Origin: a virus
Strand: one strand, 5' to 3'
Length of the DNA stretch: 23,161 nt
IMG/VR virus record: IMGVR_UViG_3300036884_000192
Location: 1 to 23,161 of that record
Shown: in pieces, positions 10,384 through 19,571 of the stretch
Position numbering within the stretch: position 1 is the stretch's first letter
How the letters are laid out: each line of letters starts with the position of its first letter
Notes under the pieces: generated by a model
What the model was told of the DNA's origin: nothing
Seen by the model: the letters and a program-made list of their open reading frames with translations, nothing else
The model's database searches: none
Translations under genes and position numbers: made by a program

Positions 10384-10479
10384 GAAGTTCTGTTTGAGAT
10401 TGCGCGAGTCGACTCCGGTCAGCGGCTCGAAACATGAAGACCCGGTTGCTTGTCAAATTCAGATCGGAGAGAGGCGCAC

Positions 10480-12159
10480 ATGAAACTGCAACAAGAGTTG
10501 TACGCTGCTGCGGCCTATGCAAGCCGCGTGCAGATGGCGAAGACGCTCGGTGTCGATGCGACGCTCGCCAAGTTGTGCCTTGAAGCTCAAGCCCTGCCAC
10601 CCAAGGAGTGGTCGCTCGAAAACGACCTCGTGAAGCGAGCCGGGCGCGAGTACATCAAGGCTTTGATGAAGGCTGGCGTCACCACCAGCCTTGGTTTCAA
10701 CTTCTATGACCTTCGTGGCCCCGCTTACATGATCTTCCCCTTGAACACTCCGTTCATCCAGATGATCCCCAAGGCGGGCAAGGTGAATGCTGGCGTCGGT
10801 ACGGTCGCGCACTGGAAGGCCACGCTGAATCCGAACTCGACGTTTGTCTATGCAGGCGTCAAGGAAGGACAGCGCAATGCCACGGCGACCCCCGACGAAC
10901 AGGATTACTTCGCGACTTACAAAGAGCTTGGCATGGAAGGCGGGGAAACCTTCACGGCGCAGTGGGCCGGCGAGGGCTACACCGACAACCTCGCGGATGA
11001 GCATTTCCGCAACCTGGCTCGCCTGCGCTTGCAGGAAGAGATGATCACGCTTTGGGGGAACGCCGGACCCTCGACCATCGCGGGACAGACTACCGGCAAT
11101 CTCGGCTTCGCTCTCGGGCAGCCCACCACGCCGAGCGTGGACGCAAGCGGTACTGCGGGCGGAATCGCGACGGGGAGCAACGTCTCCGTGGCGGTCATCG
11201 CCATCACCGCCATGGGTGTGAACCCGGGCGGGCAGGCTGGCTACAACATCCCCCCGACCGTGGCGCGCGGCCTCACCGCCTACACGGAGCGGACCAACGC
11301 GGATGGAACGAAGATTAACGTCGCGGGTGGAATCTCGGCGATTTCGAACGTCGCCGCGGGGACCACAAATAGCAGCGGGAGCGTCGTCGCTTCCCTGCCT
11401 GCACAGAAAGGCGCCGTCGCCTATGCCTGGTACTGGGGCATCAACGCAAACTCCACGGTTGACACCTTGGTCCTGGGCGCCATCACCGCATGGCCGAACT
11501 ACACGATCACCGCAAAGCCCACGGGTTTTCAGACCGGCAACGCGGTCGGATTCACGAACGACAACAGCTATCAGACAACCGATCTGGATGGCTTGGGCAC
11601 CTACACGTTCAATAACGGGATCTGCACCGACATGGGCGGTAGAACGTTCACTCCGGCTGGAAACGGCCAAGTGAAGGAAGTGGAATCTGATTTGGCGGCT
11701 CTTTACAATCTCTATCAAGCACAGCCCAGCGCCATTTGGGTTTCAGCCGATGTGCGCGCGGCCCTTGAGTCCGCGATCATCTACAGCTCGACGGGGACGA
11801 ACAGCTACATCTTCCAGTACACGAAGGATGCCCAAGGCGATTTGATGGGCGGATTCCTCGTCACGTCCTACAAGTCGAAATACTCCATCAACCCCGAGGG
11901 TGGGGCGGCCATCCCGATCCGGCTGCATCCGATGTTCCCTCCCGGCACGATGCTGTATGACATCAACACGAACCCGTATCCGCACTCGCGGGTTCCGGCC
12001 ATGCGGCAATTCTTGCTGCAACGTGACTACTACGCCATCGAATGGCCGACCGTGTCGCGTCAGTGGACTTTCGGTACTTACATCCACGAAGTCCTGGCGC
12101 ATTACATGCCGTGGATCAGCGCTATTCGCACCGGCATCGGCCCGTTTGTAAAGCCCTAA
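10480..12159 (+). CDS. Major capsid protein with an inserted beta-rich domain
   Basis: I begin at ATG 10480, preceded by GGAGAGAGG; the upstream TTG extension has no ribosome binding site. At 559 residues it is much longer than a minimal HK97-fold capsid protein. The N-terminal half (to about residue 210) contains the GVTTSLGFNFYDLRGPAY segment, an extended E-loop-like region and a helix rich in Arg/Leu/Glu (HFRNLARLRLQEEMITLWG, the spine-like helix). Residues about 210-375 are a Gly/Thr/Ala-rich insertion with an Ig- or fibronectin-like look (LTAYTERTNADGTKIN, AVAYAWYWG). The C-terminal part carries AIWVSADVRAALESAI, the surface-loop region and the final VPAMRQFLLQRDYYAIEWP. Position, length and the following fibre gene identify it as the coat protein; the fold is inferred. 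Confidence 0.85.
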   Translation: MKLQQELYAAAAYASRVQMAKTLGVDATLAKLCLEAQALPPKEWSLENDLVKRAGREYIKALMKAGVTTSLGFNFYDLRGPAYMIFPLNTPFIQMIPKAGKVNAGVGTVAHWKATLNPNSTFVYAGVKEGQRNATATPDEQDYFATYKELGMEGGETFTAQWAGEGYTDNLADEHFRNLARLRLQEEMITLWGNAGPSTIAGQTTGNLGFALGQPTTPSVDASGTAGGIATGSNVSVAVIAITAMGVNPGGQAGYNIPPTVARGLTAYTERTNADGTKINVAGGISAISNVAAGTTNSSGSVVASLPAQKGAVAYAWYWGINANSTVDTLVLGAITAWPNYTITAKPTGFQTGNAVGFTNDNSYQTTDLDGLGTYTFNNGICTDMGGRTFTPAGNGQVKEVESDLAALYNLYQAQPSAIWVSADVRAALESAIIYSSTGTNSYIFQYTKDAQGDLMGGFLVTSYKSKYSINPEGGAAIPIRLHPMFPPGTMLYDINTNPYPHSRVPAMRQFLLQRDYYAIEWPTVSRQWTFGTYIHEVLAHYMPWISAIRTGIGPFVKP

Positions 12160-12190: not shown

Positions 12191-12230
12191 TCGGCGGGGT
12201 GCTCACCCGGGGTGCCCCGCCGAGTTCTTA
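12191..12230 (+). terminator. Terminator-like hairpin after the capsid gene
   Basis: TCGGCGGGG (12191-12199) pairs perfectly with CCCCGCCGA (12215-12223) around a loop that can itself pair (CACC with GGTG), followed by GTTCTTAAT. The T-run is imperfect. It would partly stop transcription after the highly expressed capsid gene. Confidence 0.55.
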
Positions 12231-12252: not shown

Positions 12253-14604
<2,352 letters not shown>

Positions 14605-14625: not shown

Positions 14626-15669
14626 ATGAAACTCACAATCTTCTTCCCTCGAAACACCTTTGCGGGCTGGGCATCGCTTGGCGGCTATACCCAAACCTTG
14701 CGCCGCATGGGGCATGAAGTCATCGAATGCGTTCTTCCTGGAAATCAACCCCATGACATCGTGCCGCTGCGCGCCAAGCTGCCCACCATCGAGCAGCTTG
14801 CAGCCTGCGATGCGGTGATCAGTTTCTATCACGAGTACACCCAAGCCTGGCTCATGGCGCTGTACGGGCTGGAAGCGTGGGCCCCGCTGGTCAATAAGAC
14901 CATCGCCCGGTTCGATGAGTCGATGGACCGCTCGGACCTGAATCTTCCCGGACGACTCCCGGAGCTGCTTGCCTGGGCGAAGCATTGGTCATTTCCCGCC
15001 GCGCAAGACGCGAAGAAGTATGGCGGGAAGTGGCAACCCTTCGGCGCCGACACGGAGATGTTCAAATCGCGGGGCGCTGCCGGGTTTCCGGAGCAGAAAA
15101 AGTACGACGCCGCCTTCGTCGGGCAACTCTATGGTCCGCGGCTTGAGTACGCGCGCCGCCTCGCGCAGCAACCCGAGCAAATCACGCTTCAGTGTGGGCA
15201 GGTGGGCGTGCAGGAACTTGACGGGATGCGTGAGCCGGAATCGACGCAACTGCTCGCGCAGACCTACCGCCAGATCAAGGTGTTCTTCTGCCTTCCTCCG
15301 CTCTCGCGGCTGATCGTCGGGAAGGTCTGCGAGGTCATGGCCTGCGGCACATTCGTCATGTATCCCCGCCTTCCGGGCGATTCCGCCGCAAACCTGTCTG
15401 CGTTTGAAGACGGGAAGCACATCGTCTATTACGAGCACGGCTATATCCGGGAGAACGTCAAGCAGATCAAGCGCTGGCTCGAACATGACAAAGAGCGTGA
15501 ATCCATCGCACTGGCCGGCTGCTGCAAGGTACGCGAAGAGTTGAGCCTGGAGAACATGCTCGATAAACTTTTGACGCCGATAGCGCGGCAGATGGTAACG
15601 CTGGAGTCACAGCCGCATAAGCTGTTCACTCCTGCGGATGAAAAGCTCAAAGTGATGAGCGGGTTTTAG
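14626..15669 (+). CDS. CgeB-like family-4-type glycosyltransferase
   Basis: AGAAGGAA upstream of ATG 14626 is the ribosome binding site. The protein (347 aa) has an N-terminal Rossmann start (KLTIFFPRNTFAGW), an acceptor-binding half with VGQLYGPRLEYARRLAQQP (about 165-183), and the donor-binding C-terminal half IVGKVCEVMACGTFVMYP (230-247), then FEDGKHIVYYE and the helix VKQIKRWLEHDKERESIALAG. This is the pattern of GT-B glycosyltransferases of the CgeB/Glyco_trans_1_2 group, which transfer sugar from a nucleotide-sugar to a surface or protein acceptor. It directly follows the collagen-like fibre and begins a four-gene decoration cassette, so the fibre or another virion protein is the likely acceptor. 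The donor sugar cannot be read from sequence. Confidence 0.85.
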   Translation: MKLTIFFPRNTFAGWASLGGYTQTLRRMGHEVIECVLPGNQPHDIVPLRAKLPTIEQLAACDAVISFYHEYTQAWLMALYGLEAWAPLVNKTIARFDESMDRSDLNLPGRLPELLAWAKHWSFPAAQDAKKYGGKWQPFGADTEMFKSRGAAGFPEQKKYDAAFVGQLYGPRLEYARRLAQQPEQITLQCGQVGVQELDGMREPESTQLLAQTYRQIKVFFCLPPLSRLIVGKVCEVMACGTFVMYPRLPGDSAANLSAFEDGKHIVYYEHGYIRENVKQIKRWLEHDKERESIALAGCCKVREELSLENMLDKLLTPIARQMVTLESQPHKLFTPADEKLKVMSGF

Positions 15670-15670
15670 G

Positions 15671-16390
15671 ATGATCGTTGACACAAAATACGGGTTCAGC
15701 CTGAACGTGGGCGACGGAAGCTATATCGGGTCGCAGCTTGAGAAGCATGGCGTTTGGGAGCAGCCCGAGTCGGAGCGGGTGCGGTCGCTGATCCGGCCCG
15801 GGGACCTTACGGTGGATGCCGGAGCGCACGTCGGTTATTACTCCTGCCTCATGGCGAAGTGTGGTGCGCGCGTGCTGGCGTTCGAACCCAACCCAAAACT
15901 CTACACGCTGTTGAGGCAGAACGTGGCCAGCCTGCCGTCCATCACCCCACGTCTCTTTGCGCTTTCAGACGTTGACGGGGAGGCCGACTTCTTCCTTCCC
16001 TCCGGCTACGATGATGGCTTTGGGAGCCTGGGGGCAGCCGACCGGGATGATCGGAGTCATTCCATCCGGGTGCAGACGCGACGGCTTGACGGAATCCTTC
16101 CACCCGGGCGCGTCCGCGTGATGAAGATCGACGTGGAAGGTGCCGAGGCTCTGGTCATCAGCGGCCTGGGGATACGCTTCACGGATGTGGATTATTTCCT
16201 GATCGAGTGCATCGACCGCCAGCTTCGCATGGAACTCTTGGGCAGCTCGGTCGCGGTCATCAACGCATACCTCGCCCTGGCCGGGTTCCGGGTCTATGAA
16301 TACGACACGGCGGGGGGCTGGAAGCAGGTTCCGGCCGCACGGAGCACGGCGGGCCCGAGCGTGCTGTTCGAGAATCCCGTTGTGGCATAA
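15671..16390 (+). CDS. FkbM-family SAM-dependent methyltransferase
   Basis: Starts one nucleotide after the previous stop; there is no strong ribosome binding site, suggesting translational coupling. The SAM-binding loop is VDAGAHVGYYSCL (48-60), followed by VLAFEPNP (68-75), and the FkbM signature KIDVEGAE is at 152-159. Length (239 aa) is typical. FkbM enzymes O-methylate sugars or small molecules; in glycan clusters they usually cap a hydroxyl of the terminal sugar. Here, between glycosyltransferases, the likely job is methylating the sugar added to the virion, which could hide it from host enzymes or alter receptor binding. Family call is firm; the substrate is inferred from neighbours. 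Confidence 0.9.
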   Translation: MIVDTKYGFSLNVGDGSYIGSQLEKHGVWEQPESERVRSLIRPGDLTVDAGAHVGYYSCLMAKCGARVLAFEPNPKLYTLLRQNVASLPSITPRLFALSDVDGEADFFLPSGYDDGFGSLGAADRDDRSHSIRVQTRRLDGILPPGRVRVMKIDVEGAEALVISGLGIRFTDVDYFLIECIDRQLRMELLGSSVAVINAYLALAGFRVYEYDTAGGWKQVPAARSTAGPSVLFENPVVA

Positions 16391-16407
16391 CTGAAGGAGT
16401 GCTGATC

Positions 16408-17787
16408 GTGATCTCCATCCTGACCCCAACTCGAAACCGACCGAAAGAGCTGCTCCGGCTTGCTGATTCCGTGCGGGCCACGGCACAACGCTCGCAGGAA
16501 ATCGTGGCGCGCATCGACGATGACGAGCCGCAGCGGGCCGCCTATGAGGCCATCAAAGGGGTGCGGCTGATTTCCGGGCCACGGCTGGTGATGTCGGACC
16601 TGTGGAACGCGTGCTCACAAGAAGCGCAAGGTGACATTCAACTGCTTTGCGGGGACGACATCGTGTTCCGCACGCCGGGCTGGGATGCTCTGATCGAGGA
16701 TGCGTTCCTTGAGTCACCGGATAAAATCCTGCTCGTTCACGGCGATGACCTGAGCCCGAACGGGAAGAAGTTCGGCACGCATCCGGCCCTTCACCGCCGC
16801 TGGATCGAAATCACGGGCCGCTTCACCTGCCCGCTCTTTTCTTGTGATTGGGCGGACACCTGGCTCAACTACGTCGCGGACATGCTGGGACGCAGGCGCT
16901 ATCTGCCTTATGTCACCGAGCACATGCATTGGGTCTTTGGGAAAGGCATCGTCGACCAGACGATGCGTGAGAACATGGCGCGCCGGCAGAGGGACGATCC
17001 GGCAGCGCTGTTCGCCAAGCTTGAACCTGAGCGGCTCGCGGAAGTCGAGAAACTGAGGAACGCGATGGTTCCTTCCCGTTGGTCAATTCTGATCCTGACG
17101 ATGCCGGAGCGCAGGGACTCCATGGCCCGCCTGCGATCCTGCCTTATCCCGCAAGTCGCCCGACATCCAGACGTGCAGGTCTTGGTGCGGACATCCGATC
17201 CAAGCCTCTCGCTGGGCGCGAACCGCCAAGCTCTGCTCGATCAAGCCCAGGGTGAGTACGTGTCGTTCATCGACGACGACGATCTGGTCGCGCCTGATTT
17301 CGTGGACCGCGTGCGCCCGCTGCTGGATGGCGTTGACTATGTGCCCTTCCGCGTTCAGCAATACGCGGACGGCGTGCCCTTGAAGCCATCTCTCATCTCT
17401 CTGAGCTACGGCGGGTGGTCGGCTGATGAAAAGCACTACTACCGGGACATCGTTCATGTTTGCCCGATCCGGCGCGTGCTGGCGCTCATGAGCCCAATGG
17501 AAGGCGGTTACAGCGAAGACGCGCGATGGGGAAACAGGCTGAGAAAGCTTGGCGTGGTGCGCACGGAGCACGTCATTGAAGACGTGCTCTACTTCTATTA
17601 TTGGAAGTCGGGAAAGCCCGTGCCGCGGATAGTCCCGAAACCTGTGATGGCGGAATGGCCAAGTCAACGGGCAGAGAATCCCGATGTCACGGCTTGCCCG
17701 AACTGCCGGGTACGGGGAATGCTTGTTCCATCGAATGGCTGCCTGCACTGCAATCAGTGCGGGGCGAACGTGGGGGAGACTGCCTAA
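16408..17787 (+). CDS. Tandem GT2-like glycosyltransferase with C-terminal zinc ribbon
   Basis: I choose GTG 16408 because AAGGAG (16394-16399) sits 8 nt before it; GTG 16399 overlaps that site. The first half (residues 1-215) has the GT-A start ISILTPTRNRP and CGDDI (81-85). The second half starts again with SILILTMPERRDSMARL (225-241) and has the metal-binding acidic run FIDDDD (287-292). The C-terminus adds a four-Cys zinc ribbon (CPNC 430-433, CNQC 448-451). So this is a fusion of two GT-A/GT2-type domains, plausibly adding two sugars in turn, with the ribbon as a docking or targeting element. The first domain keeps an acidic GDD but has a divergent centre; it may be structural only. The same ribbon, with the same spacing, ends the terminase. 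Confidence 0.85.
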   Translation: MISILTPTRNRPKELLRLADSVRATAQRSQEIVARIDDDEPQRAAYEAIKGVRLISGPRLVMSDLWNACSQEAQGDIQLLCGDDIVFRTPGWDALIEDAFLESPDKILLVHGDDLSPNGKKFGTHPALHRRWIEITGRFTCPLFSCDWADTWLNYVADMLGRRRYLPYVTEHMHWVFGKGIVDQTMRENMARRQRDDPAALFAKLEPERLAEVEKLRNAMVPSRWSILILTMPERRDSMARLRSCLIPQVARHPDVQVLVRTSDPSLSLGANRQALLDQAQGEYVSFIDDDDLVAPDFVDRVRPLLDGVDYVPFRVQQYADGVPLKPSLISLSYGGWSADEKHYYRDIVHVCPIRRVLALMSPMEGGYSEDARWGNRLRKLGVVRTEHVIEDVLYFYYWKSGKPVPRIVPKPVMAEWPSQRAENPDVTACPNCRVRGMLVPSNGCLHCNQCGANVGETA

Positions 17788-18563
17788 TGTCGATCAAAGA
17801 CAAATCGCTCAACATCCTCGTGCCGATGTACGGCGGCATGGGCACGGTTAACTTCTTCGAGTCGTTCACTCGGCTCATTCTGATGTTGATGCACCATGGC
17901 GTGAAGTTCAGCTACACGTTCACCTACAACGAGTCGCTGATTACTCGGGGCCGGAACCGGCTGGTGGACGAGTACCTGAAGAACCACGAAGAGACGCATG
18001 CGCTGTTCGTGGACGCGGACATCGGATTCCAGGCTGAGGACGTGCTGGCGATGCTGGAGCTTGACCTTGACATCATTGCGGCGCCCTGCGCGAAGAAGTC
18101 GATCAATTGGGGGCGGATCGAGCGGACGATCCGCAAGAACGGGCGCGCCTTCACGCCGGATGAGATGTCTCGCATCTCCGCGGACTTCGTGTTCAATTAC
18201 GAGCCATTCGTGGGCCGCCGCGAGATCAAGCTTGACGAATTGCAGGAGATGCGATGCATGGGTACCGGGCTCATGATGATCCGCCGCAACGTGTTCGCGA
18301 AGTTCCGAGAGGCTTACCCGGACCGCTGGTACGAGTCGCGGTCGGACCCGAACGCGCTGCCCGGGCCGATTCATGATTTTTTCCGGGTCGGCGTCAATCC
18401 GGACACGCATGAATACGACTCGGAAGATTACTTCTTCTGCACCGACGCGAAAGCCATCGGGTTCAAAGTTTGGATGATCCCCTGGATGCGGACCTCGCAC
18501 ATGGGGACGTACAAGTTCATCGCGGACATGCCGGCCGTGGCGGCGCTGTCGGGAGACCTCTAA
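17787..18563 (+). CDS. GT-A glycosyltransferase (DAD motif)
   Basis: TAATG overlap with the previous gene and GGGGGAG before it set the start at 17787. The 258-residue protein has a Rossmann-like opening (LNILVPMYGGMG), a conserved-looking NESLITRGRNRLVDEYL stretch (48-64), and the metal-binding DxD motif in HALFVDADIGF (DAD 76-78). MRCMGTGLMMIRRNVF follows, then EDYFFCTDAKAIGFKVW, the usual end of a GT-A catalytic domain. The whole pattern is common in phage-encoded glycosyltransferases. It closes the decoration cassette and is followed without a gap by a small ORF and the connector gene. Donor and acceptor unknown. Confidence 0.85.
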   Translation: MSIKDKSLNILVPMYGGMGTVNFFESFTRLILMLMHHGVKFSYTFTYNESLITRGRNRLVDEYLKNHEETHALFVDADIGFQAEDVLAMLELDLDIIAAPCAKKSINWGRIERTIRKNGRAFTPDEMSRISADFVFNYEPFVGRREIKLDELQEMRCMGTGLMMIRRNVFAKFREAYPDRWYESRSDPNALPGPIHDFFRVGVNPDTHEYDSEDYFFCTDAKAIGFKVWMIPWMRTSHMGTYKFIADMPAVAALSGDL

Positions 18564-18701: not shown

Positions 18702-19571
18702 ATGGGCCCCAACACGATTGATCTTACGAGCCTGGCAGCGGTCAAGAGCCGAGCGGAAGTCAAATCGACGACGGACGATGCGGAGATCCAAGCATCCATC
18801 ACGGCCTTCTCGCAATGGCTGTTGGACTTCACCGGGCAGGCATCGCTCAACTCCGTGGTGGCCCATGATGACGTGTACGACGGGAACGGCAACGCACGCC
18901 TCATGCTGAACAACTATCCGGTCCTGAACGTGTCGAGCGTGACGATGAATGGGGTGGGCGTGCCCGTGTCCTCAGGCGCGAACGTGTGGGGCTATTACGT
19001 CGAGCAGTCCAAGAAGTCTCTCGGGCTTCGCGGCGGCGTGGGCAACTTCACAACGTTCCCCTATCCGACGCCTCTGAGCTATCGCGAGCGCGGGCCGGTG
19101 TTCCGGCGCGGCCAGGGCAACATCGAGGTCGTTTACAGCGCAGGCTACTCCCCTAGTTTGGTGCAGAACGATGTTGATAACGTGACGGCTGGAACGATCA
19201 CCCTACAGGAAGCGCCCTGGGTTGCGGATGCGGGCGTGACGTACTATCCGTCCTTGAACGCGATGGCGCATGTATCGAGCGGACCCGGCCCGGGGGAGTA
19301 TGCCGTATCGAACGGGCTTTACGTGTTCAGCACCAGCGATGAAGGGCAACTCGTCGCGGCGAGTTACCAGATCAATCAGCCACCGTTCAATCTGGAATAC
19401 GCGGTGCGCTGCTGCGTAGCGCTCAATTACAAGCGTAAGGGGTGGCAAGACCAGAAATCGCGCGCCGTGACCACTCAAGGCGGGTCTGCCACCACGACGT
19501 ACCGGGATTGGGATGCACCGCCCGAATACATGAAGGTGTTCGAGTACTACCAGAGGAAGGCGATCCGGTGA
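18702..19571 (+). CDS. Head-tail connector (gp6/adaptor-like)
   Basis: GAGAAAGG upstream of ATG 18702 is the ribosome binding site. The first 50 residues (LAAVKSRAEVKSTTDDAEIQ, then ITAFSQWLLDFTG) match the helical N-terminus of phage gp6-like head-tail connectors, which form a ring under the portal. The beta-rich middle (residues 55-225) with VYDGNGNARLML and NNYPVLNVSSVTMNG is longer than in the minimal family, and AVRCCVALNYKRKG forms a C-terminal helix followed by PPEYMKVFEYYQRKA. Position first after the decoration cassette and before the tail-completion genes supports the adaptor role. The central insertion (about 150-215) may decorate the neck. Confidence 0.75.
   Translation: MGPNTIDLTSLAAVKSRAEVKSTTDDAEIQASITAFSQWLLDFTGQASLNSVVAHDDVYDGNGNARLMLNNYPVLNVSSVTMNGVGVPVSSGANVWGYYVEQSKKSLGLRGGVGNFTTFPYPTPLSYRERGPVFRRGQGNIEVVYSAGYSPSLVQNDVDNVTAGTITLQEAPWVADAGVTYYPSLNAMAHVSSGPGPGEYAVSNGLYVFSTSDEGQLVAASYQINQPPFNLEYAVRCCVALNYKRKGWQDQKSRAVTTQGGSATTTYRDWDAPPEYMKVFEYYQRKAIR

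What the first reader, a model, noticed from the sequence alone, without database searches (positions are those of the whole stretch)
14626..18563. Four-gene glycosylation and methylation cassette inside the head operon, next to a GPT-rich collagen-like fibre
Seen: CgeB-like GT, FkbM methyltransferase, tandem GT2 and GT-A genes lie between the fibre and the connector, nearly without gaps. Known: bacterial collagen-like proteins such as the Bacillus exosporium protein BclA carry O-glycans on Thr of GPT triplets, and FkbM enzymes methylate sugars in glycan pathways. Inference: the phage decorates its own fibre (or capsid) with a methylated glycan.
Basis: partly seen in the sequence, partly recalled or inferred. 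Interest (0 to 1): 0.6.

Follow-up and report, generated by a model that had tools for sequence, protein, structure and literature searches.

The report
Phage head-operon sugar-coating gene island
Four genes between a phage's capsid gene and its head-tail connector most likely build a methylated sugar chain that coats the virus particle; related phages keep the sugar genes without any collagen-like fibre, so the fibre is probably not what they evolved for.

Summary
At 14626-18563 four near-contiguous genes encode a CgeB-type glycosyltransferase (PF13524), an FkbM methyltransferase (PF05050), a two-domain GT2 protein and a GT-A enzyme (phrog_1574, AlphaFold pLDDT 90). They lie between a collagen/discoidin fibre and the head-tail adaptor.

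Relatives with 60-72% identical capsids carry the cassette in the same slot with no collagen-like protein in the whole record. Collagen appears only in the closest clade, nested inside the cassette clade. One cassette-bearing member of that clade (L034) has no GPT triplet.

The cassette is locked to the capsid gene. All 29 scorable CgeB loci lie just downstream of the major capsid gene. Capsid-to-connector distance is 2.9-9.3 kb in cassette carriers with the connector in range, against a median of 265 bp in 56 cassette-less relatives.

The GT2 domains are homologous to GTs of cultured actinophages: Che8 gp108 (near gp110, reported essential for capsid glycosylation), LittleE (four GTs between capsid and connector) and phiAsp2.

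Best reading: a virion-glycosylation island with conserved end genes and fast-changing middle genes. The acceptor is more likely the capsid or another constant head protein; the fibre is possible. No biochemistry was done.

The parts
10450..12159 (+). Major capsid protein (phrog_13692; HK97-type, weak SU10_MCP match); most likely acceptor or neighbour of the acceptor
   Evidence: 28-row alignment; 43 relatives
12191..12223 (+). GC-rich 14-bp hairpin just after the capsid gene, present at the same place with different sequence in L003, L005, L008, L034, L017, L020 and L039; inferred attenuator/terminator or mRNA 3' stabiliser separating high capsid expression from the cassette
   Evidence: (z -2.0)
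12253..14604 (+). Fibre: N-terminal jelly-roll anchor (aa 1-110), collagen repeats, F5/8C domain, collagen, F5/8C, collagen, C-terminal domain. Clade-specific collagen extension of an anchor that is a stand-alone 161-aa protein in relatives
14626..15669 (+). CgeB-type GT (GT-B, PF13524); conserved first gene of the island; family found only downstream of this capsid gene
15671..16390 (+). FkbM-family SAM methyltransferase (PF05050/TIGR01444), probable sugar O-methyltransferase
16399..17787 (+). Two-domain GT2 glycosyltransferase: N half resembles Streptomyces phage Francob gp77 and phiAsp2 Pas34 N-terminus, C half resembles Che8 gp108, LittleE gp15 and phiAsp2 Pas33
17787..18563 (+). GT-A glycosyltransferase (phrog_1574), invariant DAD metal motif, NESL..AR, SED; conserved last gene of the island
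18702..19571 (+). Head-tail adaptor/connector (phrog_442), right border of the island

Best explanation
A virion-glycosylation island built into the head operon. The phage makes its own glycosyltransferases late, together with head proteins. The two conserved end genes (CgeB-type GT and GT-A) probably start or anchor the glycan on a constant head protein, most simply the major capsid protein or a head decoration protein. The middle genes (tandem GT2, FkbM) extend and O-methylate it using host, or in larger relatives phage-encoded, sugar nucleotides. Shown: gene content, fixed position, conserved ends with fast-changing middle, independence from collagen, homology to actinophage GTs of capsid-linked clusters. 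Inferred: that the product is attached to protein, which protein, which sugars, the order of steps, and a role in shielding or adsorption.
For: (1) In viral contigs all 29 CgeB loci with upstream DNA lie 104-3614 bp after the capsid gene, and the family has no tblastn hit in 50,697 phage records. (2) Capsid-to-connector distance is 2.9-9.3 kb in cassette carriers with the connector in range, versus a median of 265 bp (max 884) in 56 cassette-less relatives. (3) GT2 domains match Che8 gp108 (37%, E=2e-14), LittleE gp15 and phiAsp2 Pas33/34. Che8 gp108-110 is a three-GT cluster, and gp110 is reported as essential for capsid glycosylation (PMC12363180, PMC11256854). (4) LittleE has four GTs between its major head protein and connector; phiAsp2 has GT + O-methyltransferase + a Che8 gp110 homologue shortly after its head gene. 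(5) The GT-A model matches STIV A197, protein GTs (LH3, GalNAc-T) and the PBCV-1 capsid GT A064R-D1. (6) Relatives add UDP-Glc dehydrogenase, sugar epimerase, C-methyltransferase, up to three FkbM enzymes and a polysaccharide deacetylase. (7) Between near relatives CgeB and GT-A are 84-91% identical and capsid 86-92%, but GT2 only 52-71% (L003 and L008, 97% alike, set aside), and a second GT2 gene is missing in the window.
Against: No biochemical data. The essential Che8 enzyme gp110 has no detectable homologue in the cassettes. GT-A homologues in T4-like phages sit in replication modules, not head operons. PDB matches of the GT-A model are fold-level (TM about 0.45). Position alone does not prove the acceptor. 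A four-member large-genome subclade (L023, L025, L027, L029) lacks CgeB, though L025, L027 and L029 keep a GT-A fusion upstream of the portal gene.
Confidence: 0.62

Rival explanations
1. One reading: the cassette mainly O-glycosylates Thr in the GPT/GxT triplets of the collagen-like fibre, like Bacillus BclA.
For: Fibre gene directly precedes CgeB; 49 of 86 triplets have Thr in the third position. All collagen-bearing relatives with a long enough downstream stretch also carry the cassette. The GT-A model resembles the collagen GT domain of LH3, and giant viruses glycosylate their own collagen (PMC9614988).
Against: The cassette is found far more widely than the fibre: collagen in 5 of 27 whole records only, all in one nested clade. 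L034 has the full cassette and 0 GPT triplets. No enzyme family is exclusive to collagen carriers. LH3-type chemistry needs Lys and the fibre has only one GPK triplet.
Confidence: 0.18
2. The GTs alter the host envelope (capsule or LPS) to block superinfection or receptor re-binding rather than the virion.
For: Islands carry polysaccharide-type enzymes (UDP-Glc dehydrogenase, epimerase, polysaccharide deacetylase). Similar GT clusters in jumbo phages were interpreted this way (PMC7824862).
Against: Strict placement in the late head operon between capsid and connector in every carrier. No membrane-anchored flippase/GtrA-type gene was seen among the Pfam-scanned island genes. The same slot is used by LittleE.
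Confidence: 0.11
3. The GTs hypermodify phage DNA, as T4-type glucosyltransferases do.
For: GT-A homologues (39% identity and below) in T4-like phages lie beside gp45/gp46 replication genes; phage GTs are known DNA modifiers.
Against: No thymidylate-synthase/dCMP-hydroxymethylase family gene in 16 of 18 relative records, though these may be incomplete. FkbM, polysaccharide deacetylase and sugar-nucleotide genes fit glycan building better. Head-operon timing would be late.
Confidence: 0.07

Closest known systems
Mycobacteriophage virion glycosylation (Che8, Corndog, Myrna; Freeman et al. 2023, read only through citing papers PMC11256854 and PMC12363180)
   Same: Phage-encoded GT cluster; GT2 C-domain homologous to Che8 gp108 in the gp108-110 cluster
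   Different: No homologue of the essential gp110; Che8 cluster is at the far genome end, not in the head operon; CgeB, GT-A and FkbM are not shared
Cluster J mycobacteriophage LittleE GT genes gp15, 17, 18, 21
   Same: Four GTs exactly between the major head protein and the head-tail connector; gp15 homologous to the GT2 C-domain
   Different: Different capsid family and other GTs; no FkbM annotated; Ser/Thr kinase-like gp16 in the cluster
Actinoplanes phage phiAsp2 Pas33-35
   Same: GT2C homologue, GT2N homologue in a protein annotated as O-methyltransferase, and a Che8 gp110 homologue, closely downstream of the putative major head protein
   Different: Domain fusions differ; no CgeB or phrog_1574
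Chlorovirus PBCV-1 A064R/A061L capsid glycan enzymes
   Same: Works alike: GT-A domain, second GT and sugar O-methyltransferase that finish a methylated capsid glycan; A064R-D1 is a fold match
   Different: Fold-level only, eukaryotic virus, N-glycan, three activities in one protein
BclA-type collagen glycosylation (Bacillus exosporium)
   Same: GPT-rich collagen next to GT genes in this clade
   Different: Cassette is not tied to collagen across relatives

Membership tests
Virion-glycosylating phage GT cassette | Phage-encoded GTs homologous to GTs of phages with shown virion glycosylation | tested here: met
   GT2C vs Che8 gp108 37% identity, HMM E=3e-30; LittleE gp15, phiAsp2 Pas33
Virion-glycosylating phage GT cassette | Homologue of the GT reported essential for capsid glycosylation (Che8 gp110) | tested here: not met
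   No phmmer hit of gp110 in island ORFs; profile comparison with GT-A negative
Virion-glycosylating phage GT cassette | Linkage to structural genes | tested here: met
   Always between capsid and connector
Virion-glycosylating phage GT cassette | Covalent glycans on virion proteins | not testable with these tools
   Needs glycostain or MS of virions
BclA-type collagen glycosylation | Cassette co-occurs with GPT-rich collagen | tested here: not met
   5 of 27 records have collagen; cassette common without it
FkbM methyltransferase | Match over curated PF05050/TIGR01444 cut-offs | tested here: met
   63.6 vs 22.7 bits and 87.5 vs 37.7 bits
GT-A fold glycosyltransferase (17787-18563) | GT-A fold and DXD-type motif | tested here: met
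   pLDDT 89.6; Foldseek E=7e-9 to STIV A197; invariant D76-A-D78
DNA-glycosylation system | Phage hydroxymethyl-pyrimidine synthase (PF00303 type) | tested here: inconclusive
   Absent in 16 of 18 relative records, which may be incomplete

The most novel reading that the evidence does not exclude
The island is a serotype-like locus of a phage: fixed end genes (CgeB, GT-A) flank a rapidly exchanged set of GTs, methyltransferases and sugar-nucleotide enzymes, so that phages with 90% identical capsids display different, partly methylated glycan coats. This would be an O-antigen-like system on a bacteriophage head.
Probability: 0.4. Interest if true: 0.65.

Novelty: new variant of a known kind. 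Interest (0 to 1): 0.42.

Why it matters
Virion glycosylation in bacteriophages is experimentally known from a few mycobacteriophages. This clade of uncultured phages carries a dedicated, variable glycan island in the head operon, including sugar-nucleotide synthesis in larger members. It gives a testable genomic marker (CgeB directly behind the capsid gene) for glycan-coated phages outside the cultured actinophages. It also shows that a suggestive neighbour such as a collagen fibre can mislead about the acceptor.

Tried and rejected
Megablast of the region and tblastn of CgeB and the fibre in annotated phages: no match. A cassette-specific capsid insertion as the acceptor: rejected, the Ser/Thr-rich insertion is also in cassette-less capsids. 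A C-terminal capsid extension as glycan acceptor: it exists only in part of the carriers and is a helical-looking CWIAA box, not Ser/Thr-rich. Import of the window's GT2 gene from another phage: no closer homologue than 52-53% in viral contigs. Host assignment: one relative's contig is also binned in an Acidobacteria MAG (L060), the rest is undecided. Foldseek of the fibre anchor gives only generic jelly rolls. The primary paper on mycobacteriophage glycosylation is not held and was used through citing papers.

Full report
What is there. The window is a 23.2 kb virus fragment from IMG/VR. It carries a head operon: terminase, portal, MuF-like protein, a probable head protease, a 215-aa protein, the major capsid protein, a fibre, the four-gene cassette, the head-tail adaptor and tail genes. 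The cassette genes are real and above curated cut-offs where such exist. The GT-A gene has no Pfam family but matches phrog_1574. Its AlphaFold model (pLDDT 90) matches viral and protein-modifying GT-A enzymes: STIV A197 E=7e-9, the human collagen GT domain of LH3, the PBCV-1 capsid GT A064R-D1 and GalNAc-Ts. These matches are at fold level and do not fix the substrate.

Relatives. A capsid search returned 43 related loci. ORF-by-ORF comparison, whole-record searches and a capsid tree give a clear picture. Phages with roughly 60-92% identical capsids carry CgeB first and GT-A last between capsid and connector, with a variable middle. The smallest island seen is CgeB + GT-A in L140, at GT-A identity 69%. 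L018 and L028 have CgeB-FkbM-GT-A. Others hold up to 9 kb with several GT2 and methyltransferase genes, UDP-glucose dehydrogenase or a polysaccharide deacetylase; in the CgeB-less relative L027 an epimerase and a sugar C-methyltransferase follow the capsid gene. More distant relatives (capsid identity 28-46%, mostly in proteobacterial genomes) have no cassette, and their connector lies a median of 265 bp behind the capsid gene.

Collagen test. A search for the Pfam collagen family over whole records found it in 5 of 27, all in the window's own clade. Records of 87-179 kb with cassettes have none. In the tree the collagen clade (support 100/100) is nested within the cassette-bearing group. L034 has all four enzyme families, but its fibre has 18 triplets and no GPT. 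The first 110 residues of the fibre are a jelly-roll domain that stands alone as a 161-aa protein behind the capsid gene in L010, L017, L020 and L039, and before the protease gene in L024. In L140 a similar stretch, recognised by eye only, is fused to a different repeat. I infer a head-anchored fibre whose distal part is exchangeable.

Link to known virion glycosylation. The GT2 halves match GTs of Mycobacterium, Gordonia, Streptomyces and Actinoplanes phages. Che8 gp108 is one; it sits in a cluster with gp110, reported as essential for capsid glycosylation (PMC12363180, PMC11256854). LittleE carries four GT genes between its major head protein and connector. phiAsp2 has GT2C, GT2N plus O-methyltransferase, and a gp110 homologue close behind its head gene. 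The same slot and related enzymes in other capsid lineages are the strongest support for a virion target. The cassette is not a simple copy: it lacks gp110, and CgeB, FkbM and GT-A are its own.

Dynamics. Between window, L003, L005, L008 and L034, the end enzymes CgeB and GT-A are 84-91% identical and capsids 86-92% (L003 and L008, which are near-identical, set aside), while the first GT2 protein is 52-71% identical. A second GT2 gene present in the four relatives is absent in the window. This resembles antigen-locus evolution, but with five phages it is a lead, not proof.

Expression. Terminator-like sites in the region are not more frequent than chance, and the four genes are nearly gapless. 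A strong GC hairpin follows the capsid stop at 12191-12223 and recurs at the same place with different sequence in relatives. I infer a stoichiometry switch that keeps cassette expression below capsid expression.

Remaining doubt. GT-A homologues in T4-like phages sit next to sliding clamp and recombination genes, which keeps DNA glycosylation alive as a minor rival. Host-envelope modification is another. The acceptor protein is inferred by elimination: the capsid, and proteins shared by all carriers, rather than the fibre, which most carriers lack.

Noticed in passing
L017:10010-11932, and L010, L016, L018-L020, L023-L025, L027-L029, L031-L033, L039 capsid ORFs: Capsid proteins of many relatives end in an extra ~85-aa C-terminal box (CWIAAVVFGEDFYTGPRVNLVRRWL...) absent in the window's clade and in L011, L021, L022, L035; no NCBIfam family hit for L017.
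   Followed up: partly
window 12191-12223: Strong GC-rich hairpin right after the capsid stop, recurring with different sequence at the same place in relatives.
   Followed up: partly
L021:11776-12030, L035:7058-7321, L024:7197-7421, L018:4756-5040: Small Ala-rich protein (...VPTAAQLTQLATLQA...YIYGGNKPGIIDEGG...) right behind the capsid gene in collagen-less relatives; a possible constant capsid partner.
   Followed up: no
L195:7974-8792 and Caulobacter phage Cr30, DLP6, OC, phiM12: phrog_1574 GT-A homologues sit beside sliding clamp, clamp loader and gp46-like genes in T4-like phages; function there unknown.
   Followed up: partly
L040:2470-3967: GT2N and GT2C homologues lie just upstream of terminase in a distant relative that has no cassette behind its capsid gene.
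   Followed up: no
L027:2611-4263, L029:2614-4272, L025:2-1597: GT-A domain fused to a ~280-aa N-terminal part (weak rhamnosyltransferase match in L027) upstream of portal in a subclade that lacks CgeB.
   Followed up: partly
L017:17806-18513: GIY-YIG/NUMOD3 homing endonuclease inside a glycan island.
   Followed up: no
L060 (JABCZL010000017.1): A 123.7-kb contig of the same length and matching coordinates as the phage contig of L017 is binned in an Acidobacteria MAG; weak hint at host.
   Followed up: no
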